From Cornus controversa (Eukaryota; Streptophyta; Magnoliopsida; Cornales; Cornaceae): a stretch of 64,000 nt of DNA. The stretch's first letter is position 1; the number at the start of each line of letters is the position of its first letter. A model generated the notes under the pieces. That model did no database searches and was not told the origin of the DNA. It saw nothing but the letters and a program-made list of their open reading frames with translations. Made by a program: the position numbers and the translations under genes. The DNA lies in contig CM048848.1 in NCBI GenBank assembly GCA_026545225.1, forward strand, positions 26,886,806-26,950,805, read 5' to 3'. This document shows positions 35,361 through 60,158 of this stretch, piece after piece.

Positions 35361-35366
35361 AATTTC

Positions 35367-39180: not shown

Positions 39181-39191
39181 GTGGTGAGTTA

Positions 39192-39356
39192 ATCCTATTT
39201 GACATAGGATTTTCAGGACTCCAATTTCGTTTGAACATGGAAAACATCAAATCCTATTTCAAATTTGACAACCAAAAAAAAAAATCCTATTTGCAATAGG
39301 ATCCTCAAGTCTTCAATTCCGTTTGGACAAAAAAAAAATCCTATTTGCAATAGGAT
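39192..39356 (+). repeat. Repeated hairpin ATCCTATTTGCAATAGGAT
   Basis: Three inverted repeats, at 39192-39210 (TTTGAC loop), 39284-39302 and 39338-39356 (identical). A decayed fourth half-copy sits at 39251. Each has a 7-bp stem, ATCCTAT/ATAGGAT, and a short loop. They lie 140-300 bp upstream of the polypurine tract. Confidence 0.85.
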
Positions 39357-39494
39357 CTTCAAGTCTTCAATTCAACTTGACAAAGAAGACATCCTCTTTG
39401 TAATTGAATTTTCGCAAGAAAAAAAAAATTGTGACAATTAAATACTTCAATTCCTGCTTTAAATACATGACAAACTCAATATAGCGCGAGACTT

Positions 39495-39509
39495 GAAGTG
39501 GGGGTAATT
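39495..39509 (+). other. Polypurine tract of Tat-like element
   Basis: GAAGTGGGGGTAATT abuts the 3' LTR start at 39510. Confidence 0.75.
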
Positions 39510-39697
39510 TCTAGACATTAAAAAATTACATGATGGACCTAAAATATAATTTGGGTTTATCTTTAATTTAGTCCACTTTGGAATGTGGCCCAATGAGTCA
39601 GATAATTTGAAGCCCAAACCCACCACAAATAAATGAGTTATGAGCTGGTCTAAATTGTCTGAGAAGTCAAAGCCCACTTGAAAATGGGTCTAATGGA

Positions 39698-39773
<76 letters not shown>

Positions 39774-40248
39774 TATCGACAAAGATAATTATTATGTATA
39801 TATTGGATAATTATCAAAATTATTATAAAAGATAATTATAGGATAATTATCAAAAGAAAAGAAAGTTACAAATCTACCCCTCTGGTAAGCCTACAAATAG
39901 AGGTCCAGAGGTGGAAGAAGGGGAAGACCAGAAGATTCTCAGAAAAAGCTGAAACTCTGTAGAAGTCTTCAATCAAAATCCAAAGCTCCAAAGCACCTAA
40001 ACCCTGAAGGAGAAGAACAACAAGCACATCATCCACGTGCCATTCTTCACGAAAGTTTCAATCCAATTCAAGATCAAGCTCTTGCGACCTTTGAAGCTGG
40101 ATCATCAAGGACATCGAATCAGAGGAAGTTATTTTTTCTTTTGTAAAGATTTACAGAGGATTGTACCCCTTTTTCTTAAATTAATAAATTTTTTTATTTG
40201 TCACTAATTTTCGTTCCTAGATTTTCGAACACGAAATTTGTGTGTACA
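39510..40248 (+). mobile_element. Tat-like element 3' LTR
   Basis: Length 739 bp, TCTAGACATT...TTGTGTGTACA; the first bases are TC where the 5' LTR has TG. It carries a (TA)n(TG)n microsatellite at 39703-39770 and the promoter-like CTACAAATAGAGG at 39891 missing from the 5' LTR. Confidence 0.88.
39703..39770. repeat. (TA)n(TG)n microsatellite in 3' LTR
   Basis: About 15 TA units followed by about 17 TG units; the 5' LTR has only a short TA run here. Confidence 0.95.
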
Positions 40249-40253
40249 AGGTC

Positions 40254-40481
40254 CACAAGCAGAAGGTTCTTCAATTGGAATATGTTCTAAGGGATCCTAT
40301 TAGGAGAAATGTTCTTGGACTTTAAGATATTGAATTCGATGCTTTAAGTCCTTGATTTCTCTTTTGACCTCATGTATTTCTTGTTGAAGGTCCTAGAGAG
40401 AAATGGGTCCCATTTTTTGTTGTTTTTGCTCTATCCTAGGTATGACATTTTGGAATTCATAAGGAGGATTATCATGATAGG
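40254..40481 (-). repeat. Chimeric viral array, unit 3, right part
   Basis: Resumes the minus-strand protease-linker piece after the Tat-like element and its TSD copy, up to the TGGA joint at 40481. Confidence 0.85.
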
Positions 40482-41414
40482 TGGAAAGAGTAAGAAACCA
40501 AGCAAATCAAATACCCCAAACAACTTATTCTAAGAATAATCTTGAACAAAATCAAAGCTTATCTGGATATAGATCTCATCCTAATGACCATTAATAGAGA
40601 ATTCAACATAGATAGAAAATTAGCCCAGAGGGAATTTATGCAAGATCAGTATAAAATCCAAAGAAAAGAATTATTTTCTACATATTCCACCCTAGCATTA
40701 AGCTAGATAAAGGAAAATTATTATAATCATCTTCAACAAATCCAACAATTAATTTATTTCTTCTAATGGAAAACATAATGATTTATTCTCCATTAAAATT
40801 AGAGCTTATGCCATCAGAATCGACTGTCATAGGTTGGAGTAGAGACAAGAAAAGAGTTCCAAGGATAATTTGTTGGTTAAGATTTTTTATTAGGAGAAAA
40901 CTAGTATTAATGAAAATCTAGTTATTGCAGATTTGGGCCGAGGAATGTTTATATTTTATTTGCATTCTGCTTCCATCAGCAGTATGTAGTCTATTTTTTG
41001 TTTTAGTGTAGTATTGGGAAGGGATAAGAATTGCCTTGATACAATTCATATCTGCTCTTGAGTATAAGAGAGCTATGGATTCAAGGATAAACTCCTGATT
41101 AATGACCAATTTGATATGGACAAACTATTTTTGAAAATTTATATGGTCAATTGTTTCGAGGAATTTATTTTCTAGAGGAGGTCCACAGGTAGAAGGTTCT
41201 TCAATTGGAAAATGCTCTAAGGGATCCTGTTGGGAGAAATGTTCTTTGACTTCTAGATCTTGGATTCGAAGCTTTAATTCCTTGATTTTTCTTTTGATCT
41301 CATGTATTTCTTGTTGAAGGTCCTGGAGAGAAAGGGGTCCCATTTTTCCTTGTTTTTGCTCTATCCTAGATATGACATTTTGGAATTCATAAGGAGGATT
41401 ATCATGATAGGTGG
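40482..41414. repeat. Chimeric viral array, unit 4 (~933 bp)
   Basis: Plus-strand capsid piece 40482-40775, then a minus-strand protease piece (frames 40918-41109 and 41125-41502). The protease site reads LLYSRADMNCI, so the catalytic D-S-G is lost. Unlike the other units, the minus strand continues beyond 41414 into the authentic upstream viral sequence, so this is the innermost unit. Confidence 0.85.
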
Positions 41415-41784
41415 ATGTTTTGGATGAAGTTACATTATTATAAATGTCACCTTCATCTGCTTCGGAAGAGCTATCTTGATCTGGGAAAATTATTTTAAGC
41501 ATTTCTTTCTTAACATCTTATGTTATTTGTAAAGCACTTATTTTATCTTTAGTGACATTTTTGTCTTTAACTTTACATTGATTTTGGTAATGACCATTTT
41601 GCCCACATTTAAAGCAAGTAGGGGTTTTCTTGGAAAAGGATATTTTCTAAAATCGCTTTGTGGATTGTTGGTCTAAAGACTTGGACCTAGAAGATTTCTT
41701 GGGGTTCTTTTTAGCTTTTTTGTATTTTTTGTTGGTTCAAGGTTTTGTGGAGGAATAAGGTGTTTTGAGGGTGTCATAGCTAAT
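41415..41784 (-). pseudogene. Pararetrovirus B capsid C-terminus with zinc knuckle (minus)
   Basis: Minus-strand viral sequence upstream of the protease: an acidic segment (IIFPDQDSSSEADEGDIYNN), a knuckle CFKCGQNGHYQNQC at 41575-41616 and a Lys/Arg/Pro-rich stretch toward 41780. The knuckle is the RNA-binding tail of a Caulimoviridae capsid protein. Stops interrupt it. It ends at 41784 at a join with a plus-strand protease scrap (41785-41829) that runs into the next copy. Confidence 0.75.
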
Positions 41785-41829
41785 ACTACACTAAAACAAA
41801 AAATAGACTACATACTGTTGATGGATGGA

Positions 41830-42261
41830 AAATGCAAATATATTCACTTACATATTGTCCATGTAGGAGTAAAACCTCTCACTGCTAAAGGATTAGACAC
41901 ATCTCTTCTTTTGAATTTAAGAGACTGTAGACATCTTGATTTCCAAGATTCTTTTCTAGGAATGGTTGAAATGAGTCTCTACCAAGGACCTATCTATTTC
42001 AATTGTTACCCAATTTTTCAGTCTGTCTTGCAGACCCACATATCCTTGATGTCTTAACTGTCAATATCCAGACTCAAAGATATAAAATAAAAAACAATAC
42101 TGCAAATATCTGTCTGAGCTATTGAATTTACTATAGGGCAATGACCACTATCAACCCACAATATTGCATGCCAGTCGTCAATGACCAGGCAACTGTTCTT
42201 TTCCAAGCTAATCTAGAAACAAAAACAATAGCCACCACAAAAAAAACTTCTATGGAATGAA
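41830..42261 (+). pseudogene. Pararetrovirus B movement protein, copy 2
   Basis: 30K-type movement protein: IHLHIVHVGVKPLTAKGLDT, LRDCRHLDFQDSFLGMVEMS and YQGPIYFNCY, in frame 41818-42057. The remainder continues in another phase to a TGA near 42259. It would act at plasmodesmata. The N-terminus is missing: the frame enters through the protease scrap at 41785. Better-preserved relatives lie at 56119-56456 and 60507-60895. Confidence 0.8.
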
Positions 42262-42319
42262 GTGACTAAACCAGAATCATGGATTCTTAAGACATCTCAC
42301 AAAGAACAAATTATATAGG

Positions 42320-43680
42320 ATGAAGAAGGAAATGTTGAGATCAAATTTATTAAGACACAAACTACCCAATCACCCAGAATGTCCATCTCAAAAGCCAAAA
42401 GTGAAGCTTCTTTCCACACTACTAGAAGTTCCTGTGAACTCCTTAGATCTTCATTTTTCTAGATCTTTTAGGAGACAATCCAGCACTAGGTCCAATCAAA
42501 CTGGTACCAGATCTAGGATCCAGATGGAAGGAGTAAGAAACCAAGCAAATCAAATACCCCAAACAGTTTATTCTAAGGACAATCCTGAACAAAATCCAAG
42601 CTTATCTGAAGTTGAGATAGATCTCAACCTAATGACCATTAATAGAGAATTCAACATAGATAGAAAATTAGCCCAGAGGGAATTTATGCAAGATCAATAT
42701 AAAATCCAAAGAAAATAATTATTTCTCCATATTCCACCCTAGCATTAAGCCAGATGAAGGAAAATTATTATAATCATCTTAAAAAAATTGAACAATTCAT
42801 TCCTTTCTTCCAATGGAAAACAGAATGTTTTGACCAAGGAATCAAAGTTGTGGAAGAACATGAAAGTTCATGGAAACCACTTATTGGTCAACATGAAAAG
42901 GCAATCCATCCTCCTTTCAAAGTTCTTACAATGACAGGTGCAGACTCAACCCAATTGGTTAAACTAGCACCTCTTAAAATCCTTGATAAAGGAAAATCTC
43001 TTGCCAATGCAGAACAACTTTTCCAAATTTCTGAACAAAAACAATTTTGGAAATACCATTTTGAGTACTATTGGAGCTCAAACAAACCGATTTGAAAACA
43101 TCCTTGATTTGACCAGAGATAGCCAAAAATCTCACATAAATAGCCAAGGCTTCTCAAAACCTGATTAAGGACTCTCAAAGCCTCATTCTAGAAGTTATTA
43201 AGAACTTTCAAGACAATATTGAATCATCTAGACAATTATCTACAAACCAAAGGTTTTATGGAGGACTACATAATTCCCCTAGAAATCCAATTACAAATAC
43301 TCTCATTAAACCAGCAATCTAATTAGAACTTGAATTCAGCGTTAAGTCTAGTCATAAATAGTTTATGAAAGAATTGATTAAGAGATACAAGAATACTGAA
43401 AATCTGGACCCCATTCCATCAGGGCACAAACCTTATCCTCCCATTGATCCAGATAGGCCATTCACTGGAGTCCATCCTCTGAAGAAGAGGATGATATAGG
43501 ATTAAAACAACAGAAAACTGTTGAAACCCTTTCCAAAGACTTAAGCCCTGATTCTGAAGAATTAGAACAAATGGAAAAATAATTTGATTTATACAACAAT
43601 CAAAATCTTAAACCATACTATCCTAGGGCAACCCCTATTGATCTCTAATTAGAAGAAAAACCACATCCAACCACTTCATA
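42320..43680 (+). pseudogene. Pararetrovirus B capsid N-terminal region, copy 2
   Basis: Two larger frames (42320-42718 and 42754-43095), then fragments. The first includes SEVEIDLNLMTINREFNIDR, the segment re-used in inverted form in the chimeric array. The second includes PFFQWKTECFDQGIKVVEEH and then KSLANAEQLFQISEQKQFWK. The function of this N-terminal polyprotein part is not known to me. By position it is between movement protein and capsid core. Confidence 0.65.
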
Positions 43681-44719
43681 TAATGGATCCGCCATTTATG
43701 AATGGAATTTAGATGGATTAACCGATTATCAAATAGTCACTCTCTTACAACACATGATGATGGCTACCAACTCAACTAGAAATCGCAACCTCCATAACTC
43801 TGAAATTGGTGTTGCCAAATATCTCATTGCTGGATTCTCTGGCCAATTGAGAGGATGGTGGGATAATTATCTCACAACTAAGCAACAAAACAACATAATC
43901 CTAGTAGTCAAAAGAAGGCATAATGGAACCATTATTCTTGATGATAACGATCAACCCATACCAGATGCAGTAACAACCCTTATTACTGCAATTACCCAAC
44001 ACTTTTTGGGAAACAGTCCTGCCTTATATGAAAGAGGAAAAGAAATTCTGATTAATCTTCGATGTCCCACTCTGACTCATTTCAATTGGTACAGAGATGT
44101 TTTTCTTTCAAAACTTTATTAACGAAATGATTCAAATCATGATTTCTGGAAAAAAAGATTTATAGCAGGATTACCAACCCTTTTTGCTGAAAAGGTTTGA
44201 ACCGAATCAAAAATAAACATAATGGTTAAATTCCTTATAATCAATATACTTTTGGTGAAATAGTATCCGAAGTTTGTGCTGAGGGTCTCAACCTATGTAC
44301 AAATATTAAATTACAAAACCAATTGAAGAAGGAAAGAAAGTCAGGTCAAACTGAGTTAGGAAAATTTTGTTACCAATTTCGTTATAACACCCTCAGAACA
44401 CCTTATTCCTCCTCGAAACCTAGAACCAACAAAAAATACGAAAAATCTTAAAAGAACCCCAAGAAATCATCTAGGTCCAAGCCTTCAGAACAACAATCCA
44501 CAAACCGATTTCAGAAAAAATTCTTTTCCAAGAAAACCCCTACTTGCTTTAGATGTGGTAAAAAGGGTCATTACCAAAATCAATGTAACGTTAAAAACAA
44601 AAATGTCACTAAAGATAAAATAAATGCTTTACAAATAACAGAGATGTTATGAAAGAAATCCATAAAATAATTTTCCCAGATCAAGATAGCTCTTTTGAAA
44701 TAGATGAAGGAGACATTTA
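43681..44719 (+). pseudogene. Pararetrovirus B capsid core and zinc knuckle, copy 2
   Basis: Frame 43754-44122 holds the capsid core (KYLIAGFSGQLRGWWDNYLT; TQHFLGNSPALYERGKEILI). Decayed sequence follows with the basic stretch, then CFRCGKKGHYQNQC at 44544-44586, a CX2CX4HX4C knuckle. This arrangement is standard for Caulimoviridae capsid proteins. It is truncated at 44719 by the solo LTR, and the acidic linker continues at 48031. Confidence 0.8.
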
Positions 44720-47700
44720 TGTCACGCCCCGATTTTCAAGACTCAAAAATTGAGAGTGATTATAAAATAAATCATCACCTCATCACACACATCCTCAACA
44801 TATATAATATCACGACACTTGGAGTAATCGTCAAGTGAACACTTGTATCATCATCCATAATCATTCCAATATGAAAACCAACATTAAAGGCACAATGTCC
44901 ATATACAATATCTCAAAATAGAAGTCTCTTTATACATATCTAAACGCATCATGCCCACATCTCGAACGTGCGTAACACAAATCGTCAAAAATAAAAAATC
45001 TTTCTAACTCTAAATCCAACTCACGATTGCACACCACCAACCATCTCCTTGTCATGTCCTGAAAGTGTTAATGTAGGGGATGAGCAAGTTCAATGGCTCA
45101 AAGTAATACGTTGTGCAATCCGTCCAAATTCATATCTCATATTAATGCATAAACACAAATCGACATGCATAGCTTAACTACATATCATGCTTCCTTGCAT
45201 TCTAGTCCGAAATCAAAACTTTCACTCCACATAGCATAGACATCAAGATACTTGACTACCACAAAATTTTTAATTTAAACATGCAATAATGCACAATCTC
45301 ATCATATCTATAACATATGACCAAATGGAATCTAAACAGAAGTTCAACAGAATTATCATAAAACTCACATTTATACTCATTTCTTTCAAATGGTGGCATA
45401 TGCATCAAATGTAATTTGACAACCACATAATTTCAATTCATGCATAAAGCATATTATCCATCACATTTATGACATATGACAATTTCAAATCAGATAAATA
45501 TCCACACAAGTCTTGTAGTTCCACATAAGTTACATATAAGACCCAACACACACTCTCGGATTTGGTTCACACTCACACACATCACCGGATACGTGCCGAA
45601 ACTCCATATCCCAATTCCTAGTTATTTTAGGGCTACTAACTCACTGGTAATCAACCCTCTTACGCAAGTGTGAAGTATTTCAGCCACAGAGGATATGTTC
45701 CCCTACTACTTTCCCATGAGCCACTTTCGAGACATACCCCACTCTCACACAAAATAGTTCATATCTTGCACACACATTCACAATTTCGATGCATTGCACC
45801 CATTGAATGTCCAAATTCAATTCTAACATGTCACACAAGAGTCATAAGACATAAGTATAAGTTCATTTCCCAAAACTTGATTTTTATCATTTTTTCCAAA
45901 ATCCCGCACATGCCATACATATACCATTTTGCATATCTAATCAATTCATGCAGTATAACACATATACCAATCTTTTCACTCAAAGAAGCTCATCGAATTT
46001 AACCAAAATTCCATATATGCAATACATGTCACACAAGGTATATACCATCAATTCATGCATTCTAAATCATACATCAATTTAAATCAAGAATTTTATCATA
46101 ATTTTCGTTTAATCATAAATAGCATGAAAACATCTACTTTATGTCATTAACATGAAATTAAATTTGCAATGAAAGAGACAAATGCATACCCCCTACCTCA
46201 ATTTGGAGTGAGAAATTCAAATATTTCTAATTCCAAGAAAGTTGAAATGATCACCATCCATTGTTATATCGGAATCGTGTTACATCGCCACGCGTACCCA
46301 AAGCTTATAAAAAGCTTATAGTCTCAACCCAGTCTAAATCACCAAGTCTACTAGCCCAAGTCCAATCAAACCCACAATTAAAGATCATCATATTTCATTT
46401 TAAATGAAACTGGGCCTATTTTAATTTCTGGCCCAGTCCATTAAATTGATCCACAACAAACCCAAACCTCCATGCCCAATTAAATTGGGTAAGTCCAAAC
46501 CTCAAACATTTAAATTCAACCCACACCATAAATCTGCCAATTAACCTCAACTACCCAAACAAACCATAACAGTGCATAGCACACCTCAACAGTCGAATCA
46601 CCACCACCACCAAGCATTATACTCATTAGCCGAACCCAATTTCAGACCCCCAAACCACCACAAAATTCCACCATCTCTCCAACCCTTGCACGACACCACC
46701 TAGACGCAACATCATCAACTACCACATCATCCCAACTCATCACAAAACCCATTCTCGTCTTCAACTTGGAAACAACCAAGACCCAACACAAGGACCCATT
46801 TTCGGCCACCAAGTTGTCCATGAAGATCCAACCCCAACCGAGAACCACTCGGCTTCACCTCACCACAGCCGTGCACACACCTCCGTGAACATACGTCGGC
46901 TACCACTAAGCCTCGGCCCACCATCTAGCCAAGCCAAAATTGCCATCACCGCCATCATTCGCTGCGGTGGCAGGCTGCCACCACGATAGACCCACCAAGC
47001 TGAGCCTCTCACAACCGTGAATCGACCCACGACCACCCAACCGAAACCACCCATTTTAGCCAAGCTCCTATGGGAAAACCCAACACCAACCAAGTCTACC
47101 ACCTAACCAAATCCACCGTCCGAACAGACCAAGAAGACCAACAAGCTTCACCCCTTCTCGGCACCATCAACTTCCTCACCAAACAACCACCAAGGCAGCC
47201 TGAATAGCCACCATTCACCATTGATGTCGGCCACCAAAACTGGCTGTCAAAACAGCTGTGAGAACGAGTCCCACTGCTGAAAAACCATGAACAACCACCT
47301 GCTACCTGCACTACTTCCGGCACCTCAAACAACAACCAACATCCCTGCTAGTTGACCACCATACACTGCTGAACTGACCAACCAAATCCAGCCGAGTCCA
47401 CCACCTTGGCACACCGCAAACGAGCCGTGTCTCCACCTCACGCCATCATCGAACACCCACCACTAACCACCAGCCGCGAGCTCTTCTCTCCTGGCTTCGG
47501 GTTCTCCTTCTCTCACTCTAACTCAAGCTTTCTCTCTCTAAAGCGCTCTCTCTCTCTACACTTCTCTTCTTTCTCTCTCTATAGCTCGATTTCTCCTTCT
47601 CAGCTACCCTTCCAAGCTTTCTCTCTCTTCCCTCTTTCTTTTTCCTTTTCTACTCTTCTTTTCTTCTTTCTTTTTCTATCTCTCAGCCGACACTTATACG

Positions 47701-48026
47701 TGCCTCCACACTGTGCACTCGTAACCGCGACCGTTAGATATAGTAATTTTAGATTGTTGATGGCTTGAGACATTTGCTAAGCTTAAATGTAATATAAATA
47801 TATAAATGTATGTATGTATCCACAACCTATAATATAAATATCTTCTTTTCTTTACCAACTCTCTCTCAACCCAATCTCTTTAAACCATATCTTCCATATA
47901 TATATATATATATATATAATGCCATTTATATATATATATTCACACCCTTCCAAAATTAATTAATTTGAAAAAAAAAAATCGATGCAAATATAATTTGAAA
48001 GGGTCAAAAATAACTCAGTCCTTACA
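44720..48026 (+). mobile_element. Solo LTR, Tekay/Del-like, about 3.3 kb
   Basis: Opens TGTCACGCCCCGATTTTC, the start typical of chromovirus Tekay/Del LTRs, and ends near CTCAGTCCTTACA. It interrupts viral coding sequence that continues on both sides. The flanking direct repeat is ATTTA (44715-44719) against ATTTG (48026-48030), so the exact end is uncertain by one base. No primer site or polypurine tract is present inside, and the length is extreme but known for this lineage. It has a CT-rich block at 47490-47700 and TA runs at 47897-47935. Frames of either strand between 45476 and 47768 have no domains and are not called. Confidence 0.75.
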
Positions 48027-48030
48027 TTTG

Positions 48031-48660
48031 TGATGATGTAAGTTCATCCAAAACATCCACCTATCACGATAATCCTCATGAATTCCAAAATGTCATATCT
48101 AGGATAGACCAAAAACATAGAAAAACGGGACCCCTTTCTATCCAGCACCTTCAACAAGAAATACATGAGGTCAAAAGAGAAATCAAAGACTTAAAGCTTT
48201 GAATTGAAGATCTAGAAGTCCAAGAAAATTTCCCCGAACAGAATCCCTTAGAGCATATTCCAATTAAAGAACCTTTTGCCAGAGGACCTCTTCCAGAAAA
48301 TAAATTCCTCGAAACAATTAATCATATAAATTTTCAAAAATGGTTTGTCCATATCAAATTGGTCATTAATCAGGAGTTTATCCTTGAAACCATACCTCTC
48401 TTAAACTCAGGTGAAGATATGAATTGTATCATGGAAAGTCTTATCCCTTCCCAATACTATACTAAAACAAAAAAATAGACTACATACTACTGATGGAAGC
48501 AAAATGCAAATAAAATATAAACTTTCCTCGGCCCGGTTTTCTCCTAATTAAAAATCTTAACCAATAAATTATCCTTGGAACTCCTTTCTTGTCTCTACTC
48601 CAACCTATGACAGTCGATTCTAATGGCATAAACTCTAATTTTAATGGAGAAGAAATCATT
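48031..48660 (+). pseudogene. Pararetrovirus B protease, first of two in copy 2
   Basis: Plus-strand acidic linker and protease; the site reads LLNSGEDMNCI, with the catalytic Asp changed to Asn. A deletion of about 45 bp follows the site near 48530. It ends at a joint with an inverted capsid piece. Confidence 0.75.
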
Positions 48661-48927
48661 ATATTTTCCATTGGAAGAAGGGAATGAATTGTTGGATTTG
48701 TACAAAATGATTGTAATAATTTTCCTTCATCTGGCTTATTGCTTGGGTGGAATATTAAGAAAATAATTATTTTCTTTGCATTTTATACTGATCTTGCATA
48801 AATTCCCTCTGGGCTAATTTTATACTGATCTTGCATAAATTATATTGGTTGGAATTTATTCAGGATTGTCATCAGAATAATTTGTTTGGAGTATTTGATT
48901 TGCTTGGTTTCTTACTCCTTCCACCTA
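48661..48927 (-). pseudogene. Inverted capsid-region piece inside the protease region
   Basis: Minus-strand copy of the NLMTINREFN segment, with a 29-bp internal duplication (TTTTATACTGATCTTGCATA at about 48781 and 48818). The right joint is at TTCCACCTATCATGG (48919-48933), the same joint as the left edges of the array units at 32181, 33113, 34047 and 40482, seen from the other strand. Confidence 0.8.
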
Positions 48928-49739
48928 TCATGGTAATCCTCCTTATGAATTCCAAATTGTCATATCTAGGATAGAGCAAAAACAAGGAAAAACGGGACCC
49001 CTTTCTCTCCAAGACCTTCAACAAGAAACACATGAGGTCAAAAGAGAAATCAAGGACTTAAAGCTTCGAATCCAAGATCTAGAAGTCCAATAACATTTCT
49101 CCCAACAGGATCCCTTAGAGCATATTCCAATTGAAGAACCTTCTGCCTGTGGACCTCCTCCAGAAAATAAAATGCTCGAAACAATTAACCATATAAATTT
49201 GAAAAAATGGTTTGTCTATATAAAATTGGTCATTAATTAGGAGTTTATCCTTGAAACCATAGCTCTCCTAGACTCGGGAGCAGATTTGCATTCTATTAAG
49301 GAATGTCTTATCCCTTCCTAATACTACACTAAAACAAAAAATAGACTACATACTACTGATGGAAGCAAAATGCAAATAAAATATAAAATTTCCTCGACCC
49401 AAATTTGCAATAACCAGATTTGCATTAATATCAGTTTCCTCCTGATAAAAAATCTTAACGAACAAATTATCGTTGGAACTCCTTTCTTGTCTCTACTCCA
49501 ACCTATGAAAGACGATTCTAATGGCATTAGCTCTAATTTTAATGGAGAAGAAATCAATTTTAAATTCATTCATCCCCATCAAGAGAATATATTCAATTCT
49601 CTAAAAGGGACTTAATTGTGGAAAAAAATAAACAAATTTTCTCCCTCCAATCAGATCTTGCTCATGAAAAAATAGCCCTACAGATTTTCCCAGAATCTTT
49701 TCAGCTTAAAGTGAAAAAATTTCAGGATTCATTATAGCA
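48928..49739 (+). pseudogene. Pararetrovirus B protease, second of two in copy 2
   Basis: It repeats the linker (RIEQKQGKTGPLSLQDLQQE) and the protease, with site ALLDSGADLHSI (D-S-G intact) at about 49260-49300 and the C-terminal part in frame 49370-49615 (IIVGTPFLSLLQPM). Stops lie near 49092 and 49238. It leads directly into RT. Confidence 0.8.
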
Positions 49740-50580
49740 AGAAATTTGTTCTGACCGCCCAACAGCCTTTTGGTATAGGAAGAAACATATTGTATCTTTG
49801 CCTTATCTTCCAGACTTTAATGAAAAGGATATTCCAACTAAGGCAAGGCTAATCCAATTGAATCATGACACGATGGAAATTTTTTCAAATTTGAAAACCA
49901 AGATCTTCTTGAAAAGAATTTAATCTGTCCTAGTCATTCTCCATGGAGTTGTGCTGCAATCTATGTCATAAAAAATGTAGAATTAGAACAGGGATCACCA
50001 AGACTTGTCATCAGCTATCACCCATTAAATAAGGTATTGCAATGGATCTGATACCCTATCCCTAATAAAAGAGACCTTCTAAACCGATTACATGATGCCA
50101 AAGTATTTCCAAAATTTGATCTAAAGTCAGAATTTTGGCAAATATAAGTTACTAACAAAGATCGGTACAAAAATGCATTCACAGTCCCATTTGGGCACTG
50201 TGAATGCAATGTCATGCCTTTTGGCCTCAAAAATGCTCCCTCTGAATTTCAGAAAATAAGGAATGACGTCTTCAATCCTTATACTACTTTTAGTATTGTT
50301 TATATTGATGATGTTCTAATTTTCACCACCTCAATAGATCAACATTGGAAACACCTGAATCACTTTGTCAAAATAATGAAACATCATGGTTTAGTTGTCT
50401 CTGCCCCTAAGATGAGCCTATTCATGACCAATGTAAAATTTTTGGGGCACAAGATTCATTTAGAAAAAGATTCATTTAGGTAAAATCATCCCAATAGATA
50501 GATCCATTAATTTTGCGGATAAATTTTCTGATGAAATAAAAGATAAAACGCTACTCCAGTGATTCTTAGGAAGCCTCAAT
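49740..50580 (+). pseudogene. Pararetrovirus B reverse transcriptase, copy 2
   Basis: RT that would copy pregenomic RNA. Visible: PRLVISYHPLNK (fingers), FPKFDLKSEFWQI, MPFGLKNAPSEFQKI and the catalytic YIDD at 50301-50312, then VKFLGHKI. Frame 50214-50483 is the longest open part. Stops interrupt upstream (TGA near 50047, TAA near 50146). Copies at 56690-57150 and 61700-62428 agree closely. Confidence 0.85.
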
Positions 50581-51092
50581 TATATCTCTAATTTTTATAA
50601 AAATTTGGCACAAGATGCTGCAATTCTCCATCAGGGATTAAGAAAGAATCCTTCTCCTTGGACATCCCAACATACTGAGGCGGTTCAAAAAGTTAAATCC
50701 AAAGCCAAATTCATTCCATGCTTATGTCTTCCAAATCCATCTGCTTTTAAGATTGTTGGAACAGATGATTAAGAACAATTAGTTTGATTAACTTTTAAAA
50801 GATAGAAAACGTCTCAAAAGGATTATTCCACCATCAAAAAGAAGATCCTTGCCATAGTACTCAGCATCCTAAAATTTGAAGGAGATCTTCTGAACCAAAA
50901 ATTTATCTTAAAAGTTGATTGCAAAATAGCCAAAGATGTCCTCCAAAAGGATGTCAAGAATATCGCCTCTAAGCAATTTTTTGCTAGATGGCAAGCTCTT
51001 CTCTCTGCTTTTGATTTCGATATTGAATATATTAATGGCGAATCAAATTCCCTCCCTGATTTTTGGACTCGTGAATTTATGCAAGGAAAATA
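50581..51092 (+). pseudogene. Pararetrovirus B RNase H, copy 2
   Basis: RNase H region in shifting phases. Wording matches the better frame of copy 4 (57395-57670). The segment with the first catalytic Asp is deleted near 50765 (the GGYGG segment seen at 57310 is absent). The C-terminal end reads SAFDFDIEYINGESNSLPDF. Confidence 0.75.
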
Positions 51093-52182
51093 ATGAGACC
51101 AGCAACATCAAGAAGTCATCCTGAAGACCATCAATCCAAAGGCAAAGAGCTTGAACAATTAAACCCTCCTTTACCAAAATACTTTACTCATGACACTTTA
51201 TGGCATTTTATCCCAATAGAAAAAGATGAATTCCATCTACGCACCAAAGAAATTATCCAAATTTATTTCCCTAAAAATTACCATTATCCACCTTAAGCAG
51301 CTGAAAATGATAGATGGTATTTTGATGAAATTCTATCTTGCACAAATTCAACAAAAATAGAACATAAGACCTCCTCCGGAGCAACCTTTTCTCAAAAATT
51401 CTCATCTCATTTCACCCAAATTGGGTTTTCTCAGTTAAAAATCCTCAGAATCCATTCAAGAAAAGACTGGGGTGATCCTTCCAGGACAAGATGAATTCCC
51501 CATGCTTCTAATATTTTCCCTCAAGAGTTCAACTTTTTTTATTATCAGAAAGTATGGAAATTCATCCTTTACCTTCAAAATAACAAATTCAAACACTCTT
51601 GGTTCATAACCTTTGTCAAAAATAAATTCTATCAAGAAATCCCTTCTTGGTTCTCTAGTTGGTGGATCCAGTTTGTTCCTGATCTTGGAATCTTATCTAT
51701 TCCTCTACAAAAATCCTTTGAAGCTTATGATCGTATGCTGAAAACCATTTCTCCTTACCCAGATGATTCACTTTTGGATTTTAAGGCAAAATTTGCCATT
51801 CCATGGATTGTTGCGTGGCAATATGTTGTTGATCCCACTGAAAGTCCCTCAAGCCTATGCAGACAAATAGCATCCAAGTGGTGGGATAAATTTAATTATG
51901 ACCATTTTAACCTTAGCCAAATTGAGAAGATATCCAATTTTTATATCAAAGTTGAACCCTTCCAACCACCACCAAATCCTAATGATATAGATAAATTGTC
52001 CATCTTACAAAAAACTATCAAAGCTAAGATCCTTAGCAAAAATCCTAAGACAATAAATTGCTGTCCATCTTGCTTCTATTTTTTTTTTTGACTCAGATTC
52101 AAAAAATATTATCAATACTGGAGACAATGTCTCTTTTACCCCTGAAAATGAAGATAACTGTTATGTTATCTCATTAAAGTAA
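51093..52182 (+). pseudogene. Pararetrovirus B post-RT ORF, copy 2 (function unknown)
   Basis: A separate ORF after RNase H, beginning in a phase that overlaps its end. The N-terminus (frame 51093-51296) includes PPLPKYFTHDTLWHF and IQIYFPKNYHYPP. The middle includes WFSSWWIQFVPDLGILSIPL. Frame 51735-52091 has KFAIPWIVAWQYVVDPTESP and ASKWWDKFNYDHFNLSQI. It ends near a VSFTPENED-type acidic tail. It sits where Caulimovirus genomes carry the transactivator (TAV/P6), but I see no TAV signature, so no function is claimed. Three copies are present in the window. Confidence 0.6.
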
Positions 52183-52417
52183 AGATTGTAATAATTCATA
52201 TAATGGACAAATTGTCTTGGGAAAAAAAAAAGAAAAAGGTTTGCAATAGAGGAAAAATTGTCCTTAGAAGAAAGATATCTTTGTCCTCACCTTGAAAAGC
52301 AGATCCGAGCAAATTAAAGTAGATTATTTGTCTCTGATCAAGCTAGCATCTTTACCTATAATCATATTCTTTAATAAATGAAGTTCAAATTCATGTTTCA
52401 AATCCAAAGATGTTACC

Positions 52418-52425
52418 TATAAAAG
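52418..52425 (+). promoter_or_regulatory. Pararetrovirus B promoter TATA box, copy 2
   Basis: TATAAAAG in the context GTTACCTATAAAAGGGGTG, between the post-RT ORF and the primer site. The same context occurs at 54094-54101 (minus) and 59008-59015. It is positioned like the pregenomic RNA promoter of Caulimoviridae. A TTTAATAAATG (52371) lies about 45 bp upstream. Confidence 0.7.
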
Positions 52426-52643
52426 GGGTGTCCCCTAACCTGTGGAGAGGCACCTAAGTTTTAAGAAATAATTTTGTCAGTTTCTTAGAATTCTTCAGGT
52501 TTTCATGCATTAATCTTCAGAAGCTACTAAGTTTGTAAGTTTGTTTATGTTAAGTTTTTGAGTTTATTTATGTTTGTAAGTAAGCTTGTTTATAAGTAAC
52601 ATCAGTAAGTTGTTTTAAATTTTGTGTCATTCCTAATTCCACA

Positions 52644-53996
52644 AACCTTTTCAGCAAAAGAGGATTGGTAATCCTGCTATAAATCTTTATTTCACGAAAT
52701 CATGTTTGCGTCATTTCATTAATAAACTTTGGAAAGAAAAACATCTCTATAACAATTGAAATGGTTTAAGAGTGGGACATCGAAGATTAATCAGAATTTC
52801 TTTTCCTCTTTCATATAAGGCAGGAGTGTTTCCCAAAAAGTGTTGGGTAATTGCAGTAATGATGATTGTTACTACATCTGGAATGGGTTGATTGTTGTCA
52901 TCAAGAGTAATGGTTCCATTATGTCTTCTTTTGATAGCTAGGATTATGCTATTTTGTTTCTCAGCTGTGAGATAATTATCCCACCATCCTCTCAATTGGC
53001 CAGAGAATCCAGCAATGAGATATTTGGCAACACCAATTTTGAAGTTATAGAGGTTGCGATTTCTAGCTAAGTTGGCAGCCATCATCATGTGTTATAAGAG
53101 AGTGACTATTTGATAATCGGTTAATCTAAATTTCATTGATAAATGGCGGATCCATTATATCAAGTGGTTTGATGTGGTTTTTCTTCTAATTGGAGATCAA
53201 TAGGGGTTGGCCTAGGATAGTATGGTTTAAGATTTTGAATGTTGCATAAATCAAATTGTTGTTCAATTTGTTCTAATTCTTTAGAATTAGGGCTTAAGTC
53301 TTTGGAAAGGATTTCAACAGTATAATTTTGTTTTAATCCTATGTCATCCTCTTCTTCAGAGGATGGACTGGCAGTGAATGGCCTATCTGGATCAATGGGA
53401 GGATAAGGTTTGTACCTTAATGGAGTGGGGTCTAGATTTTCAGTATTCTTGTATCTCTCAATCAATTCATCCATAAATTGATTATGACTAGACTTAAGGT
53501 TGAATTTAGGTTCTAATTGGATTGCTGGTTTAATAAGAGACTTAAGGCTGAATTCAGGTTCTAATTGGATTGTTGGTTTAATGAGAGTGTTTGTAACTAG
53601 ATTTCTAAGGGAATTGGGTAATCCTCCTAAAACTTTTGGTTTGTAGGTAATTGTTAAGATGGTTCAATATTGTCTTGAAAGTTCTTGATAACATCTAGAA
53701 TGAGGCTCTGAGAGTCCTTACTCAGGTTTTAAGAAGCCTTGGCTATTTTTATATGGGATTTTTGGCTATCTCTGGTTAAATCAATGATGTTCTCTATCTG
53801 GTTTGTTTGAGCTCCAATAGTACTCAAAATGGAATCCAAAATTTCTTTGTTCAGAAATTTAGGAAAGTTTTTCTACAATGGTAGGAGATTCTCCTTTATC
53901 AAGGATTTTAAGAGGTTCTAGTTTAACCAATTAGGTTGGACTGCCTTTTTATGTTGACCAATGAGTGATTTCCATGATCTTTCATATTCTTCCACA
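52644..53996 (-). pseudogene. Pararetrovirus B capsid region, copy 3 (minus)
   Basis: Minus strand. The capsid core (frame 52747-53088; YLIAGFSGQLRGWWDNYLT) and its N-terminal part (53160-53474, then fragments to 53996). Upstream words such as MDELIERYKNTENLDPTPL match the degenerate 43360-43640 of copy 2. At 52643 it is joined tail-on to the leader end of copy 2, and at about 53997 to a protease-RT linker scrap. Confidence 0.75.
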
Positions 53997-54347
53997 ACTT
54001 AGAGTATAGTTGGAATATCCTTTTCATTAAAGTCTGGAAGATAAGGCAATGATACAATATGTTTGGTGCCTCTCCACAGGTTGGGGGTCACCCCTTTTAT
54101 AGGTAACATCTTCGGATTTGAAACATGGATTTGAACTTCATTTATTAAATAATAAGGATGCCATCTTGATTGTAGGTAAAGATGCCAGCTTGATTAGAGA
54201 CAAAGAATCTACTTTAATTTGCTCGGATTTGCTTTTTAGGGTGGGGATGAAGATATCTTTCCTTTAAAGCCAATTTGTCCTCTATTGCAAACCTTTTTCT
54301 TTTCTTTTCCCAAGACAATTTGTCCATTATATGAATTATTACTATCT
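53997..54347 (-). pseudogene. Pararetrovirus B linker scrap and promoter region, copy 3
   Basis: 53997-54062 is a minus-strand scrap of the protease-RT linker (matches 49785-49840). From 54063 it is the promoter/leader region on the minus strand, with TATAAAAG at 54094-54101 and the conserved CCTGTGGAGAGG block just downstream. No gene. Confidence 0.65.
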
Positions 54348-55475
54348 TTACTTTAATGAGATACCATAACAGTCATCTTCATTTTTAGGGGTAAAAGAGA
54401 CATTGTCTCCAGTATTGATAGTATCTTCTGAATCTGGGTCAAAAAAAGCAGAAGCAAGATGGACAATAATTTGTTGTCTCAATTCTTCTCTCGAAATATT
54501 AGGATTTTTGCTTAGGATCTTAGCTTCGATAGTTTTTTGTAAGGTGGACAATTTATTCGTATCATTAGGATTTGGTGGTGGTTGGAAGGGTTCAGCTTTG
54601 ATATAAAAATTGACCATCTTCTCAATTTGGCTAAGGTTAATATGGTCATAATTATATTTATCCCACCACTTGGATGCTATTTGTCTGCAGAGGCTTGGGG
54701 GAATTTTACTGGAATCAATAACATATTGTCATGCAACAATCCATGGAATGGCAAATTTTGTCATAAAATCCAAAAGTCAATCATATGGATAAGAAGAACT
54801 GGTTCTCAGCATACGATTATAGGCTTCAAACGATTTTTGAAGAGGAATCGGTAAGATTTCAGGATCAGGACAAAACTGGATCCACCAACTAGAGAACCAA
54901 GAAGGTATCTCTTGACAATTATTTTTGACAACGGTTACGAACCAAGAGTGTTTGAATGTTTTATTTTGAAGGTAGAGGATGAATTTTCATGCTTTCTGAT
55001 AATCAAAAAAGTTAAACTCTCGAGGGAAAATATTAGAAGCATGGGGAATTCGTCTTGTATTGGAAGGATCACCTTAGTCTTTTCTTGAAAGGATTCTGAG
55101 GATTTTTAACTGAGAAAATCCAATTTGGGTGAAATGAGACGAGGTTTTATGAGAAAAGGTTGCACCGGAGGAGGAGGTCTTATGTTCTATTTCTGCTGAT
55201 TTTGTGCAGGTTAGAATTTCTTCAAAATGCCATCTATCATTTCCAGCTACTTTAGGTGGATAATGGTAATTCTCAGGGAAATAAATTTGGATAATATCTT
55301 TGGTGGGTAGATGGACTTCATCTTTTTCTATTGGCATAACATGCCATAAAGTGTTATGAGTAAAGTATTTTGGTAAAGGAGGGTTTAATTGTTTAAGCTC
55401 TTTGCCTTTGAATTGATGGTCTTCGGGATGACTGCCTGATGTTGTCGATCTCAGTGTTTTCCTACAAAAATTCAC
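54348..55475 (-). pseudogene. Pararetrovirus B post-RT ORF, copy 3 (minus)
   Basis: The C-terminal frame 54348-54617 (FQPPPNPNDTNKLSTLQKTI; tail GDNVSFTPKNEDDCYGISLK) and the N-terminal frame 55074-55475 (LNPPLPKYFTHNTLWHVMPI; HTKTSSHFTQIGFSQL-like). The middle is broken by frameshifts. Here the C-terminal tail and the last codons are complete. Same unknown protein as at 51093-52182. Confidence 0.65.
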
Positions 55476-56002
55476 GAGTCAAAAAATTCGGGAGCGAATT
55501 TGATTCGCCATTAATATATTCAATATTGAAATCAAAAGCAGAGAGAAGAGTTTGTTATCTAGCAAAAATTTGCTTAGAGGCAATATTTTTGACATCCTCT
55601 TGGAGGACATCTTTGGTTGCTTTGCAATCAATTCTTAAGAGAAATTTTTGGTTGAGAAGATCTCCTTCAAATTTAAGGATGGTGAGTACTATGGCGAGGA
55701 TCTCTTATTGTTGGTGGAATAATTCTTTTGAGACGTTTTCATGTTTTAGAAGTGAATCGAACTAATTGTTCTTTTCCATCATCTGTCTTTTGGTTGAGAA
55801 TACCTCCATAGCCTGCTTCTGAAGCATCTATTTCAGCAATCTTAAAGGCAGAAGGATTAGGAAGACATAAGTATGGAATGAATTTTGCTCTGGATTTAAT
55901 TTTTTCAACCCACTCAGTATGTTGGGTTGTCCATAGAGAAGGATTCTTTCTTAATCGCTGATGGAGAATTGCAGTGTTTTGTACCAAATTTTTATAAAAA
56001 TC
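55476..56002 (-). pseudogene. Pararetrovirus B RNase H, copy 3 (minus)
   Basis: Frame 55739-55987 includes PSAFKIAEIDASEAGYGGIL, the first catalytic Asp segment of RNase H, and KEQLVRFTSKT. The rest continues leftward in shifted phases to about 55476. The upstream end at about 56003 is joined to half a zinc knuckle. Confidence 0.75.
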
Positions 56003-56118
56003 AGATTGACCCTTTTTCTCACATTGAAAGCAAATAGGAGCTTTCTTGGAAAAGGATTTTTTCTGAAATCTCTTTGTGGATTGTTGTTCTTAAGGGTTGG
56101 ACCTAGATGATTTCTTGG
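56003..56118 (-). pseudogene. Pararetrovirus B half zinc knuckle (minus)
   Basis: A minus-strand scrap of the basic region plus the first half of the knuckle (CFQCEKKG), cut before the His. It is joined on the left to RNase H and on the right, at 56118, to plus-strand movement protein sequence. Confidence 0.7.
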
Positions 56119-56690
56119 ACTGCAGACATCTTGATTTCCAAGATTCTCTTCTAGGAATGGTTGAAACGAGTCTCTACCAAGGACCTATCTATTTCAATTG
56201 TTACCCCAATTTTTCAGTCTCTCTTGTAGACCCACATATCGTTGATGTCTTAACTGTCAATATCCAGACTCAAAGATATAAAATGAAAAACAATACTAGA
56301 AATATCTGTCTGAGTTATAGAATCTACTACAGGGCAATGACCACTATCAACCCACAATATTGCATGTCAGTCATCAATGATCAGGCAATTATTCTATCCC
56401 AAGCTAATATGAAAACAGGAACAATAGCCACCACAAAAAAAACTTTTATGGAATGAAGTGACTAAACCAGACTCATGGATTCTTGACCAAGCAACAACCC
56501 CAGATATTCCTAAGACATCTCACATAGAACAAATTATATAGGATGAAGAAGGAAATGTTGAGATCAAATTTATTAAGACTCCTACCACCCAATCACTCAC
56601 CAACCTAATGACCATTAATAGAGAATTCAACATAGATAGAAAATTAGCCTAGAGGAAATTTATGCAAGATCAGTATAAAATCCAAAGTAT
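56119..56690 (+). pseudogene. Pararetrovirus B movement protein, copy 4, plus capsid scrap
   Basis: The movement protein lacks its N-terminus: frame 56097-56456 contains CRHLDFQDSLLGMVETSLYQ and YPNFSVSLVDPHIVDVLTVN. A short capsid-region scrap with LMTINREFNIDR follows at 56600-56690. That scrap is joined directly to RT, so the capsid core, knuckle and protease are deleted. Confidence 0.75.
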
Positions 56691-57150
56691 TGTCAAAATT
56701 TGATCTAAAATCAAGATTTTGGCAAATACAAGTTACTAACAAAGATCGGTACAAAACTGCATTCACAGTCCTATTTGGCCTCAAAAATGCTCCCCTTAAA
56801 TTTCAGAAAATAATGAATGACATCTTCATTCGTTATACTACTTTTAGTATTGTTTATATTGATGATGTTCTCATTTTCAGCACCTCAATAGATCAACATT
56901 TGAAACACCTGAATCACATTGTTAGAATAATGAAACATCATGGTTTAGTTCTCTCTACCCCTAAGATCAGCTTATTCCAGACCAATGAAAACTTTCTGGG
57001 ACACAAGATTTATTTAGGAAAAATCATCCTAATAGATTGATCCATTAATTTTGTGGATAAATTTCCTAATGAAATAAAAGATAAAACCTAGCTCTAGCGA
57101 TTCTTACGAGGCCTCAATTATATCTCTGATTTTTATAAAATTTTGGCAGA
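56691..57150 (+). pseudogene. Pararetrovirus B reverse transcriptase, copy 4
   Basis: Frame 56690-57040: SKFDLKSRFWQIQVTNKDRY, the catalytic YIDD at 56855-56866, ENFLGHKIYLGKI. The upstream finger region is missing because of the deletion joint, and about 30 bp before GLKNAP (the segment holding MPF) is lost near 56780. Confidence 0.85.
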
Positions 57151-57670
57151 AGACACTATAATTGTCCACCAGTGATTAAGAAAGAATTCTTCTCCCCAGA
57201 CATCCCAACATACTGAGGCAGTTCAGAAAAATAAATCCAAAGTAAAATTCATTCCATGCTTATGTCTTCCTAATCCTTCTGCCTTTAAGATTGTTGAAAC
57301 AGATGCTTCAGAAGGAGGCTATGGAGGTATTCTCAAGAAAAAGACAAATGATGGAAAAGAACAATTAGTTCGATTCACTTCTCAAACATGGAAAATGTCT
57401 CAAAAGAATTATTCCACCATCAAAAAGGAGATCCTCACCATAGTACTCAACATCCTTAAATTTGAAGGAGATCTTCACAACCAAAAATTTATATTAAGAA
57501 TTGATTGCAAAGTAGCCAAAGATGTCCTCCAAATGGATATGAAGAATATTGCCTCTAAGCAAATTTTTGCTAGACGTCAGGCTCTTCTCTCTGCTTTTGA
57601 TTTCGATATTGAATATATTAAAGGCGAATCAAATTCCCTCCTTGATTTTTTGACTCATGAATTTTTGTAG
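57151..57670 (+). pseudogene. Pararetrovirus B RNase H, copy 4
   Basis: Degrades the RNA strand of RNA-DNA hybrids. Frame 57395-57670 is open: SQKNYSTIKKEILTIVLNIL (Glu), KFILRIDCKVAKDVLQMDMK (Asp) and AFDFDIEYIKGESNSLLDFL. The first catalytic Asp segment (DASEGGYGGIL) lies at 57300-57335, in the phase interrupted by a stop near 57172. Confidence 0.85.
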
Positions 57671-58786
57671 GAAAAACAATAAGATCGGTAACATCAGGAA
57701 GTCATCTCAAAGACCATCAATCCGAAGGCAAAGAGCTTGAACAATTAAACCCTCCTTTACTAAAATACTTTACTCATGACACTTTATGGCCTGTTATCCC
57801 AATCAAAAAAGTTGAAGTCCATCTACCCACCAAAGAAATTATCCAAATTTATTTCCCTGAGAATTACCATTGTCCACCTCAAGCAGCCAGAAATGATAGG
57901 TGGTATTTTGAAGAAATTCTAACATACACAAAAATTAGCAGAAATAGAACATAAGACCTCCTACGGAGTAACCTTTTCTCAGAAATCCTCGTCTCATTTC
58001 ACCCAAATTGTGTTTTCTCAGTTAAAAATCCTCAAAATCCTTTCAAGAAAAGACTTGGGTGATCCTTCCAAGACAAGATGAATTCCCCATGCTTCAAATA
58101 TTTTCCCTCGAGAGTTCAACTTTTTTTCTTATCAGAAAGTATGGAAATTCATCCTCTACCTTCAAAATAACAAATTCAAACACTCTTGATTCATAACCTT
58201 TATCAAAAATAAATTATGTCAAGAAAACCCTTTTTGGTTCTCTAGTTGGTGGATCTAATTTGTTCCTAATCCTGGAATCTTACCTATTCCTCTACAAAAA
58301 TCCTTTGAAGCCTATGATTGTATGCTGAAAACCATTTCTTCTTATCTAGATGATTCACTTCTGGATTTTATTGCAAAATTTGCCATTCCATGGATTGTTG
58401 CATGGCAATATATCGTTGATTCCACTGAAAGTCCCCTAAGCCTCTGCACACAAATAACATCCAAGTGGTGGAATAAATTTAATCATGACCATATTAACCT
58501 TAGCCAAATTAAGAAGATGACTGATTTTTATATCAAAGCTGAACCCTTCCGACTGCCACCAAATCCTAATGATAGGGATAAATTATCCACCTTACAAAAA
58601 ACTATCAAAGTTAAGATCCTTAGCAAAAAATCCTAAGATTTTGAGAGAAGAATTAAGACAACAAATTGTTGTCTATCTTGCTTCTACTTTTTCTGACTCA
58701 GATTCAGAAAATACTATCAATACTAGAGACAATGTCTCTTTTACTCCTGAAAATGAAGATGACTGTTATGTTATCACATTAAAGTA
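57671..58786 (+). pseudogene. Pararetrovirus B post-RT ORF, copy 4
   Basis: Longest open part 58322-58636 (AKFAIPWIVAWQYIVDSTES; TSKWWNKFNHDHINLSQI), then 58569-58787 in the next phase, with the tail to the stop at 58785-58787. The N-terminal part (from about 57690) is broken by stops and a TAA near 57949. Compared with copy 2 it has the same length and domain order. Confidence 0.65.
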
Positions 58787-59007
58787 AAGATAGCAATAAT
58801 TCATATAACGGTCAAATTGTTGGAAAAAGAAAAGAAAAAGTTTTGCAATAGAGGACAAATTGCCCTTAAAAGAAAGATATCTTCGTCCTCACCCTGAAAA
58901 GTAGATCCGAGCAAATTAAAGCAGATTCTTTGTCTCTGATCAAGCTGGCATCCTTATCCTTTAATAAATGAAGTTCAAATTTGTGTTTCAAATCTGAAAA
59001 TGTTACC

Positions 59008-59239: not shown

Positions 59240-59267
59240 AATTCTCTTACTACTATTATCTTTGAAC

Positions 59268-60150: not shown

Positions 60151-60158
60151 CTTTGAAC

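What the first reader, a model, noticed from the sequence alone, without database searches (positions are those of the whole stretch)
48031..49739. Same chimeric joint in opposite orientation inside a second virus copy
Copy 2 reads linker, protease, inverted capsid piece, linker, protease, RT. Its joint at 48919-48933 is the reverse complement of the array's unit joint. Read in viral direction, both loci have the layout knuckle - protease - inverted capsid piece - protease. So the rearranged protease region existed before the two loci separated, perhaps as a variant viral genome that integrated more than once, or by later genomic duplication. The single-protease copy at 60899 shows the unrearranged form.
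Basis: partly seen in the sequence, partly recalled or inferred. Interest (0 to 1): 0.75.

Follow-up and report, generated by a model that had tools for sequence, protein, structure and literature searches.

The report
Scrambled fossil plant virus, copied joint
An ancient plant virus seems to have been captured once into this chromosome in scrambled pieces, and one freak joint inside it was copied five times at about that time, so the two look-alike places are neighbouring parts of one insertion and not two visits by a variant virus.

Summary
Copy 2 reads linker – protease (PRa) – inverted segment X – protease (PRb) – RT. Both joints (PR→invX, invX→PR) have the same breakpoints as in the four units of the 32–41 kb array, with 2-bp and 4-bp microhomology. 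The "capsid piece" is the stretch between movement protein and capsid core.

The interpretation needs changing. Array and copy 2 are not two loci: they lie head to head in one compound insertion (32076–62428, about 20 kb of viral DNA) of a florendovirus-like endogenous caulimovirid, later broken by nested insertions. Copy 2 starts at 41829; a 3.3-kb insert splits it.

In the host's 772-Mb assembly the joints were found only here: 5 of 29 and 5 of 40 scored places cross them, all ten in this window. Seven window proteases form one clade (100/100) against eight others. Array proteases are as far from each other (K 0.116) as from copy 2's (0.104), so the array is about as old as the insertion.

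Best reading: one microhomology-driven template-switch event around capture, multiplied soon through the duplicated protease. Scrambling is known for endogenous caulimovirids; a multiplied sub-genomic chimeric unit looks unusual.

The parts
48056..48658 (+). copy 2 first protease block (PRa), with internal deletions
   Evidence: 87% to 60902-61542; alignment
48653..48926 (-). copy 2 inverted X segment (MP-CP junction), middle part locally rearranged
   Evidence: 77% to minus strand of native X 42522-42831; alignment
48653..48658 (.). joint A (PR to inverted X), 2-bp microhomology TG
48919..48926 (.). joint B (inverted X to PR), 4-bp microhomology TGGA/TCCA
48920..49556 (+). copy 2 second protease block (PRb), directly followed by RT
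49557..52644 (+). RT, RNase H, ORF2 of copy 2; ends about 3 nt before the position matching the primer-binding site at 59228
   Evidence: Pfam RVT_1 and RT_RNaseH
48019..48055 (+). viral linker of copy 2, right of the 3.3-kb insert
44721..48018 (.). nested 3.3-kb insertion splitting copy 2; flanks ACATTTATG / ACATTTGTG; type not established
   Evidence: flanks; genome probe for its end did not complete
41829..44720 (+). upstream half of copy 2: MP, native X (42522-42831), CP core, zinc knuckle
   Evidence: Pfam MP and DUF7746
41782..41840 (+). protease fragment joining array (minus) to copy 2 (plus), head to head
   Evidence: 93% to PR block
41440..41778 (-). zinc-knuckle region at the viral 5' side of the array
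   Evidence: 90% to 44383-44720
40779..41415 (-). array PR1
40479..40784 (+). array inverted X 1
40249..40485 (-). array PR2, first part
34755..40248 (.). LTR retrotransposon in PR2 (LTRs 34755-35360 and 39510-40248; 5-bp target duplication AGGTC)
   Evidence: LTR K2P 0.075; gag-like ORF 36485-36988, Pfam E 1.3e-4 but 22.5 bits, below the cut-off 24.1
34348..34754 (-). array PR2, second part
34044..34353 (+). array inverted X 2
33415..34050 (-). array PR3
33110..33420 (+). array inverted X 3
32484..33114 (-). array PR4
32177..32487 (+). array inverted X 4 (shares three letters with native X that the other copies lack)
32076..32183 (-). array PR5, first 108 nt only; left end of the compound insertion
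52642..56118 (-). further scrambled viral blocks: CP (52642-54003), RT fragment (54007-54064), RNase H-ORF2 (54062-56005), zinc knuckle (56007-56118)
56118..62428 (+). permuted viral piece MP-X fragment-RT-RH-ORF2-primer site-leader-MP-PR-RT with its own deletion joints; 59226-60571 not matched to another copy (leader inferred, holds a third insert)
60906..61542 (+). single protease block followed by RT (comparison copy c3)
   Evidence: Pfam RVP

Best explanation
The stretch 32076-62428 is one compound insertion of a single genotype of a florendovirus-like endogenous caulimovirid, captured once in scrambled form. At or just before capture a polymerase (host repair polymerase or viral reverse transcriptase) copying the protease stopped at the PR/RT edge, switched by 2-bp microhomology to the opposite strand of the MP-CP junction, copied about 300 nt of it inverted, and switched back by 4-bp microhomology to the start of the protease. 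That gave PR-invX-PR. The duplicated protease, a direct repeat of about 640 nt, then served as homology for slippage or unequal exchange that gave (PR-invX)4-PR'. One product became the middle of copy 2; the multimer became the neighbouring array, joined head to head. Shown: the joints, their sameness, their absence from the other scored places of the genome, adjacency of array and copy 2, common ancestry of the window proteases tested, and that the array predates the LTR element inside it. Inferred: the single capture, the order of the two switches, which polymerase, and whether multiplication came just before, during or soon after capture.
For: Same breakpoints in five copies. 0 of 20 and 0 of 32 scored places outside the window cross joint B or A. 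Ten out-of-window PR copies in fetched stretches run into RT within 10 nt, with no invX between (nine, one). Seven window PRs form a 100/100 clade against 8 out-of-window PRs. RT probe: copy 2's RT 91%, best outside 83% over full length and 85% over part (40 of 206 candidates scored). Array and copy 2 abut through viral DNA. I count twelve distinct viral-viral joints in the block map, block edges overlapping or missing each other by up to 12 nt. PR K2P within array 0.116, array-PRa 0.104, array-c3 0.087; nested LTR pair 0.075 +- 0.011. PR singletons even over codon positions, 57/48/40. In 3 of 5 chimeric units the PR frame meets a TGA about 10 codons into invX, and the native X antisense has it too, so the chimera probably cut RT off from the start.
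Against: Copies are not a pure star: 26 informative sites against 9.4 expected, highest of 300 simulations 18, and the splits conflict. Order is unresolved: array alone is not in the best tree (AU p 0.257 and, with outgroups, 0.171); chimeric PRs are a side of a branch at 85/89 without outgroup but not with (AU p 0.265). Site 437 groups PRa with RT-linked PRs, against site 93. For X, copy 2 is further from the array (K 0.172) than array copies are from each other (0.095); its middle is rearranged and poorly aligned, with 9.9% singletons. X copy 4 shares letters with native X, so copies exchanged sequence or mutated alike. RT-linked PR copies also meet stops soon after the joint position (codons 25 and 43 from the anchor), as decayed copies do. 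Genome probes score a limited number of candidates.
Confidence: 0.68

Rival explanations
1. A rearranged viral genome with PR-invX-PR (or a 933-nt circle of PR+invX) multiplied as a helper-dependent variant before capture, and two of its products were captured together here.
For: Copies of similar age. PRb groups with c3 rather than with its neighbour PRa (92/89; PRa+PRb held together AU p 0.07), as if a chimeric piece and a normal genome had recombined within PR. Copy 2 ends about 3 nt from the primer-site position, a natural end of caulimovirid DNA; rice ERTBV ends also sit at intergenic region and discontinuities (PMC526188, passages).
Against: Joints in none of the 20 and 32 scored places outside. 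The stop in invX cuts RT off from the polyprotein. Shared differences among PRs show no third-position excess, 10/7/10 over codon positions 1/2/3, though only 27 sites.
Confidence: 0.2
2. The array grew much later in the plant chromosome by unequal crossing-over from a single copy-2-like unit.
For: Direct PR repeats are a ready substrate; unequal recombination of tandem EPRVs is described (PMC8256270, passages).
Against: Array PRs differ from each other as much as from PRa and more than from c3; identities within the array 87-92%, no near-identical neighbours (PR5p to PR1 93.5% over 108 nt); the LTR element sits inside unit 2 with LTR K 0.075, below unit divergence.
Confidence: 0.08
3. Segmental duplication plus inversion of one host locus produced array and copy 2.
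For: Head-to-head layout and local clustering.
Against: Similarity between the two places stops inside viral sequence.
Confidence: 0.03
4. Assembly artefact.
For: Repetitive region; no reads at hand.
Against: Units differ by about 10%, carry private indels, and one holds an LTR element with its own 5-bp target duplication.
Confidence: 0.01

Closest known systems
Endogenous florendoviruses (Geering et al. 2014, PMC4241990; passages and section 7 seen)
   Same: Domain order MP-CP-zinc finger-protease-RT-RH followed by ORF2 without known homology; endogenous caulimovirids mostly fragmented and rearranged; compound insertions; capture suggested during double-strand break repair
   Different: What I saw of it does not describe an inverted segment between two proteases or a multiplied sub-genomic unit; a word beginning 'inver' does not occur in the held text
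Florendovirus component A (same paper, section 7)
   Same: c3 (MP - deleted CP - PR - RT) has the same kind of deletion
   Different: The c3 MP-PR joint is crossed by 1 of 40 scored places, itself; the paper reports large numbers of component copies
Rearranged and tandem endogenous caulimovirids (review PMC10377300, passages; tomato LycEPRV PMC1899175, passages; rice ERTBV PMC526188, passages)
   Same: Inverted, duplicated and truncated viral pieces; tandem arrays and multicopy rearrangements; ends at viral DNA discontinuities
   Different: In the passages seen the arrays are head-to-tail genomes or mixed fragments; here a 933-nt two-part chimera is the repeated unit
Tomato inverted-repeat ECVs giving 22-nt siRNA (Valli et al. 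2023, known only as cited in PMC10377300; paper not held)
   Same: Inverted viral repeats in one locus, e.g. 54062-56005 against 57125-59047
   Different: No small-RNA data here
Microhomology-mediated template switching (MMBIR/FoSTeS; PMC2621351 seen in a search listing only; duplication-inversion-duplication pattern recalled)
   Same: Duplication with an inverted templated segment between, 2-4 bp microhomology
   Different: Templates are viral DNA at a capture site; polymerase unknown

Membership tests
Endogenous caulimovirid | MP, capsid, aspartic protease, RT and RNase H of caulimovirid type in host DNA | tested here: met
   Pfam MP 1.2e-6, DUF7746 2.2e-30, RVP 2.7e-6, RVT_1 1.2e-21, RT_RNaseH 5.2e-8, each above its cut-off; window lies in a 771.7-Mb assembly. 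That DUF7746 is the capsid is recalled
Endogenous caulimovirid | tRNA-Met primer-binding site | tested here: met
   Exact 12-mer at 59228-59239, 3 nt past the end of the ORF2 block; motif recalled; with up to 2 mismatches 5 matches against 3.55 expected, so only the exact match and its place count
Florendovirus | One large ORF MP-CP-zinc finger-AP-RT-RH1 | tested here: inconclusive
Florendovirus | ORF2 without homology to known proteins | tested here: met
   51495-52088: 0 Pfam families at 0.01; protein search gave 1 unnamed relative among 20 candidates
Florendovirus | RT within the florendovirus clade | not tested
   No named florendovirus RT was at hand; assignment rests on layout
Bipartite florendovirus component | Same deletion in many copies | tested here: not met
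   c3 MP-PR joint crossed by 1 of 40 scored places (50 candidates), itself
Replicating rearranged variant integrated repeatedly | Same joint in loci with different host flanks | tested here: not met
   0 of 20 (joint B) and 0 of 32 (joint A) scored places outside the window; one exact pattern in viral contigs 0
Segmental duplication | Similarity running into host flanks | tested here: not met
   within the window
Microhomology-mediated template switching | Short microhomology at joints with templated, partly inverted insert | tested here: met
   TG and TGGA at joints A and B; four of the other ten joints read by eye at 1-6 bp; the remaining six known only by block-edge overlaps or gaps

The most novel reading that the evidence does not exclude
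Capture of viral DNA at a chromosome break can in one step create a tandem, satellite-like array: a template-switch chimera is made and multiplied by error-prone repair synthesis during the capture itself. The transversion-rich private changes of the protease copies (69 ts: 76 tv against 31:12 in the nested LTRs) could be a trace of it. Against: RT and MP pairs that include c3 are also transversion-rich (28:24 and 18:14), so the excess is not special to the array.
Probability: 0.12. Interest if true: 0.6.

Novelty: new variant of a known kind. Interest (0 to 1): 0.35.

Why it matters
The locus is a readable record of how plant virus DNA without an integrase enters a chromosome: one genotype, about a dozen joints with short overlaps, and one chimera that was multiplied at about the time of capture. 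If multiplication at capture is real, virus capture is a possible birthplace of tandem repeats. It is also a caution: identical chimeric joints near each other do not prove a circulating variant virus.

Tried and rejected
Replicating variant integrated more than once: probes over both joints found them only in this window. Segmental duplication: no shared host flank in the window. Late array growth: unit divergence too high. Component-A reading of c3: joint not recurrent. A clear branching order of protease copies: not resolved; 26 informative sites against 9.4 expected on a star, most splits with one site each and many in conflict, so some shared history, exchange or repeated change exists. 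Solved-structure search with a protease piece: nothing at E up to 1. Exact joint pattern in viral contigs: 0; metagenome and prokaryote contigs were not searched. Literature searches; in their listings and the passages that I opened I saw no description of a multiplied PR-invX-type unit. PMC13308828 held none of five terms on rearrangement. For 'beetEPRV' only a repeat catalogue was listed, and PMC9868043 is not held, so prior description elsewhere is possible. Open because the probes did not complete: the identity of the 3.3-kb insert, and whether the shortened linker is private. That linker is about 20 nt in the array, against gaps of 241-343 nt between matched blocks (about 240-255 nt after allowing for knuckle matches that end early) in the 8 of 10 other copies whose fetched stretch includes a knuckle.

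Full report
What was checked. The finding says that copy 2 at 48 kb carries protease - inverted piece - protease with the same joint as the 32-41 kb array. A self-comparison, alignments of the joint regions and pattern searches confirm it. Joint B: 4 array units and copy 2 on the other strand, none expected from 100 shuffles; the sixth hit is the native segment. Joint A: the same five places. The breakpoints are the same in all five; joint A has 2 bp and joint B 4 bp of microhomology with the native sequences.

What the pieces are. Pfam names the movement protein, a capsid-type domain (DUF7746; that it is the capsid is recalled), a retroviral-type protease, RT and RNase H in separate open pieces; the ORF2 piece has no family. 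This order, and an exact tRNA-Met site at 59228 (motif recalled), fit florendovirus-like endogenous caulimovirids as described in PMC4241990 (passages and section 7). A tree with named florendoviruses was not made. The inverted piece X is the stretch between movement protein and capsid core.

One insertion, not two loci. The block map shows viral blocks edge to edge from 32076 to 62428 except for three stretches: 34755-40248, 44721-48018 and 59226-60571. Array (minus strand) and copy 2 (plus strand) meet at 41778-41840 through a 59-nt protease fragment. Copy 2 begins at 41829: its linker is interrupted at 44720/48019 by 3.3 kb flanked by ACATTTATG / ACATTTGTG, while the array shows the linker uninterrupted. 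Array unit 2 is split by an LTR retrotransposon with 5-bp target duplication AGGTC. The third stretch starts with the primer site and holds an insert with 8-bp flanks CTTTGAAC at about 59268-60145 (by eye); the rest is taken as viral leader by position only. I count twelve distinct viral-viral joints; A and B are the only ones present more than once in the map.

Is the joint elsewhere? The window's assembly has 771.7 Mb in 61 contigs. Joint B probe: 29 places scored; 9 lie in the window, of which 5 cross the joint, 3 match the protease side only and 1 the X side only; 20 lie outside, none crossing. Joint A probe: 40 scored of 59 candidates; 8 in the window, 5 crossing; 32 outside, none crossing, although some matches run up to about 15 nt past the joint. 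Control: the MP-PR joint of c3 is crossed only by c3 itself, 1 of 40 scored of 50 candidates, so c3 is itself rearranged upstream. Ten out-of-window protease copies in fetched stretches run into RT within 10 nt (nine, one); one of them (L014) has an internal deletion. Because candidates are capped and divergent copies score low, an unseen copy of the joints elsewhere is not excluded.

Ancestry and timing. With eight out-of-window proteases, seven window proteases form a 100/100 clade; PRb and c3 pair at 92/89; the chimeric proteases are an unresolved bush. Two short window pieces (PR2a, PR5p) were left out of the trees, and so were the L014 and L026 proteases. Without outgroup the chimeric proteases oppose PRb+c3 at 85/89. 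K2P of PR: within array 0.116 (6 pairs, 0.095-0.146), array-PRa 0.104, array-PRb 0.115, array-c3 0.087; LTR pair 0.075 +- 0.011. So the array looks no younger than the insertion and older than the LTR element. For X: within array 0.095, array-native X 0.074, array-copy 2 0.172; the last is raised by a rearranged, poorly aligned middle in copy 2. Private PR changes are even over codon positions (57/48/40, p 0.22), shared ones too (10/7/10, 27 sites), which gives no sign of a long coding life as a variant virus. In the PR frame a TGA lies about 10 codons into invX in 3 of 5 units and in the native antisense; two units also have a stop just before joint A, and the RT-linked copies have stops further on. 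The chimera probably lacked RT in its polyprotein from the start.

Results that do not fit neatly. The copies are not a pure star (26 informative sites against 9.4 expected, maximum 18 in 300 simulations). Site 437 puts PRa with the RT-linked proteases, site 93 with the array. X copy 4 shares three letters with native X (support 92/95); 3 of 5 out-of-window X copies carry the letters of the other copies there, while L023 has two of the three native-type letters and L024 differs, so exchange is likely but the direction is not certain. Private protease changes are rich in transversions, 69:76, against 31:12 in the LTR pair (p 0.005) and 60:20 in one CP and one ORF2 pair (p 7e-5); those two pairs were my choice, and the RT and MP pairs with c3 are 28:24 and 18:14, more like the proteases. 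Three breakpoints (joint B, c3 joint, linker deletion) fall within about 15 nt, which hints at a preferred break or stop site.

Mechanism. Duplication - inverted insert - duplication with short microhomology is what template switching gives; the duplicated protease then offers homology for multiplication. The review PMC10377300 (passages) names microhomology repair at breaks and concatemers as sources of such loci. PMC526188 (passages) reports rice junctions at the intergenic region and at discontinuities, and copy 2 likewise ends about 3 nt from the primer-site position. Whether a viral or a host polymerase did it cannot be told from sequence.

Verdict. Real, and the single origin of the joint is right; the two-locus, variant-virus reading is not supported. 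An unusual but explicable example of scrambled capture.

Noticed in passing
34755-40248: LTR retrotransposon (gag-like ORF, below the Pfam cut-off) nested in array unit 2, 5-bp target duplication AGGTC; the 3' LTR has a longer TA/TG repeat and an extra stretch
   Followed up: partly
59268-60145: Insert with 8-bp flanking repeats CTTTGAAC and similar ends, hAT-like by eye, in what is taken as viral leader
   Followed up: no
54062-56005 and 57125-59047: Two viral blocks of about 1.9 kb form an inverted repeat at 88% with 1.1 kb between; a transcript could fold to a hairpin
   Followed up: no
48056-49556, 32484-41415, 60906-61542: Private changes of protease copies are transversion-rich compared with the nested LTRs; RT and MP pairs with the 60-kb copy are similar
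   Followed up: partly
41420-41439 and 48019-48055: Some 220-240 nt between zinc knuckle and protease, present in 8 of 10 other copies looked at (the other 2 stretches hold no knuckle), are missing in both array and copy 2
   Followed up: partly
30260-30772: Open frame that looks like another retroelement protease-RT by eye; no Pfam family at 0.01
   Followed up: no
11578-30027: Large direct duplications, 73-97% identical, in the left half of the window
   Followed up: no
L013 (G000:C6:8813000-8822000): Another viral locus with two copies tail to tail
   Followed up: no
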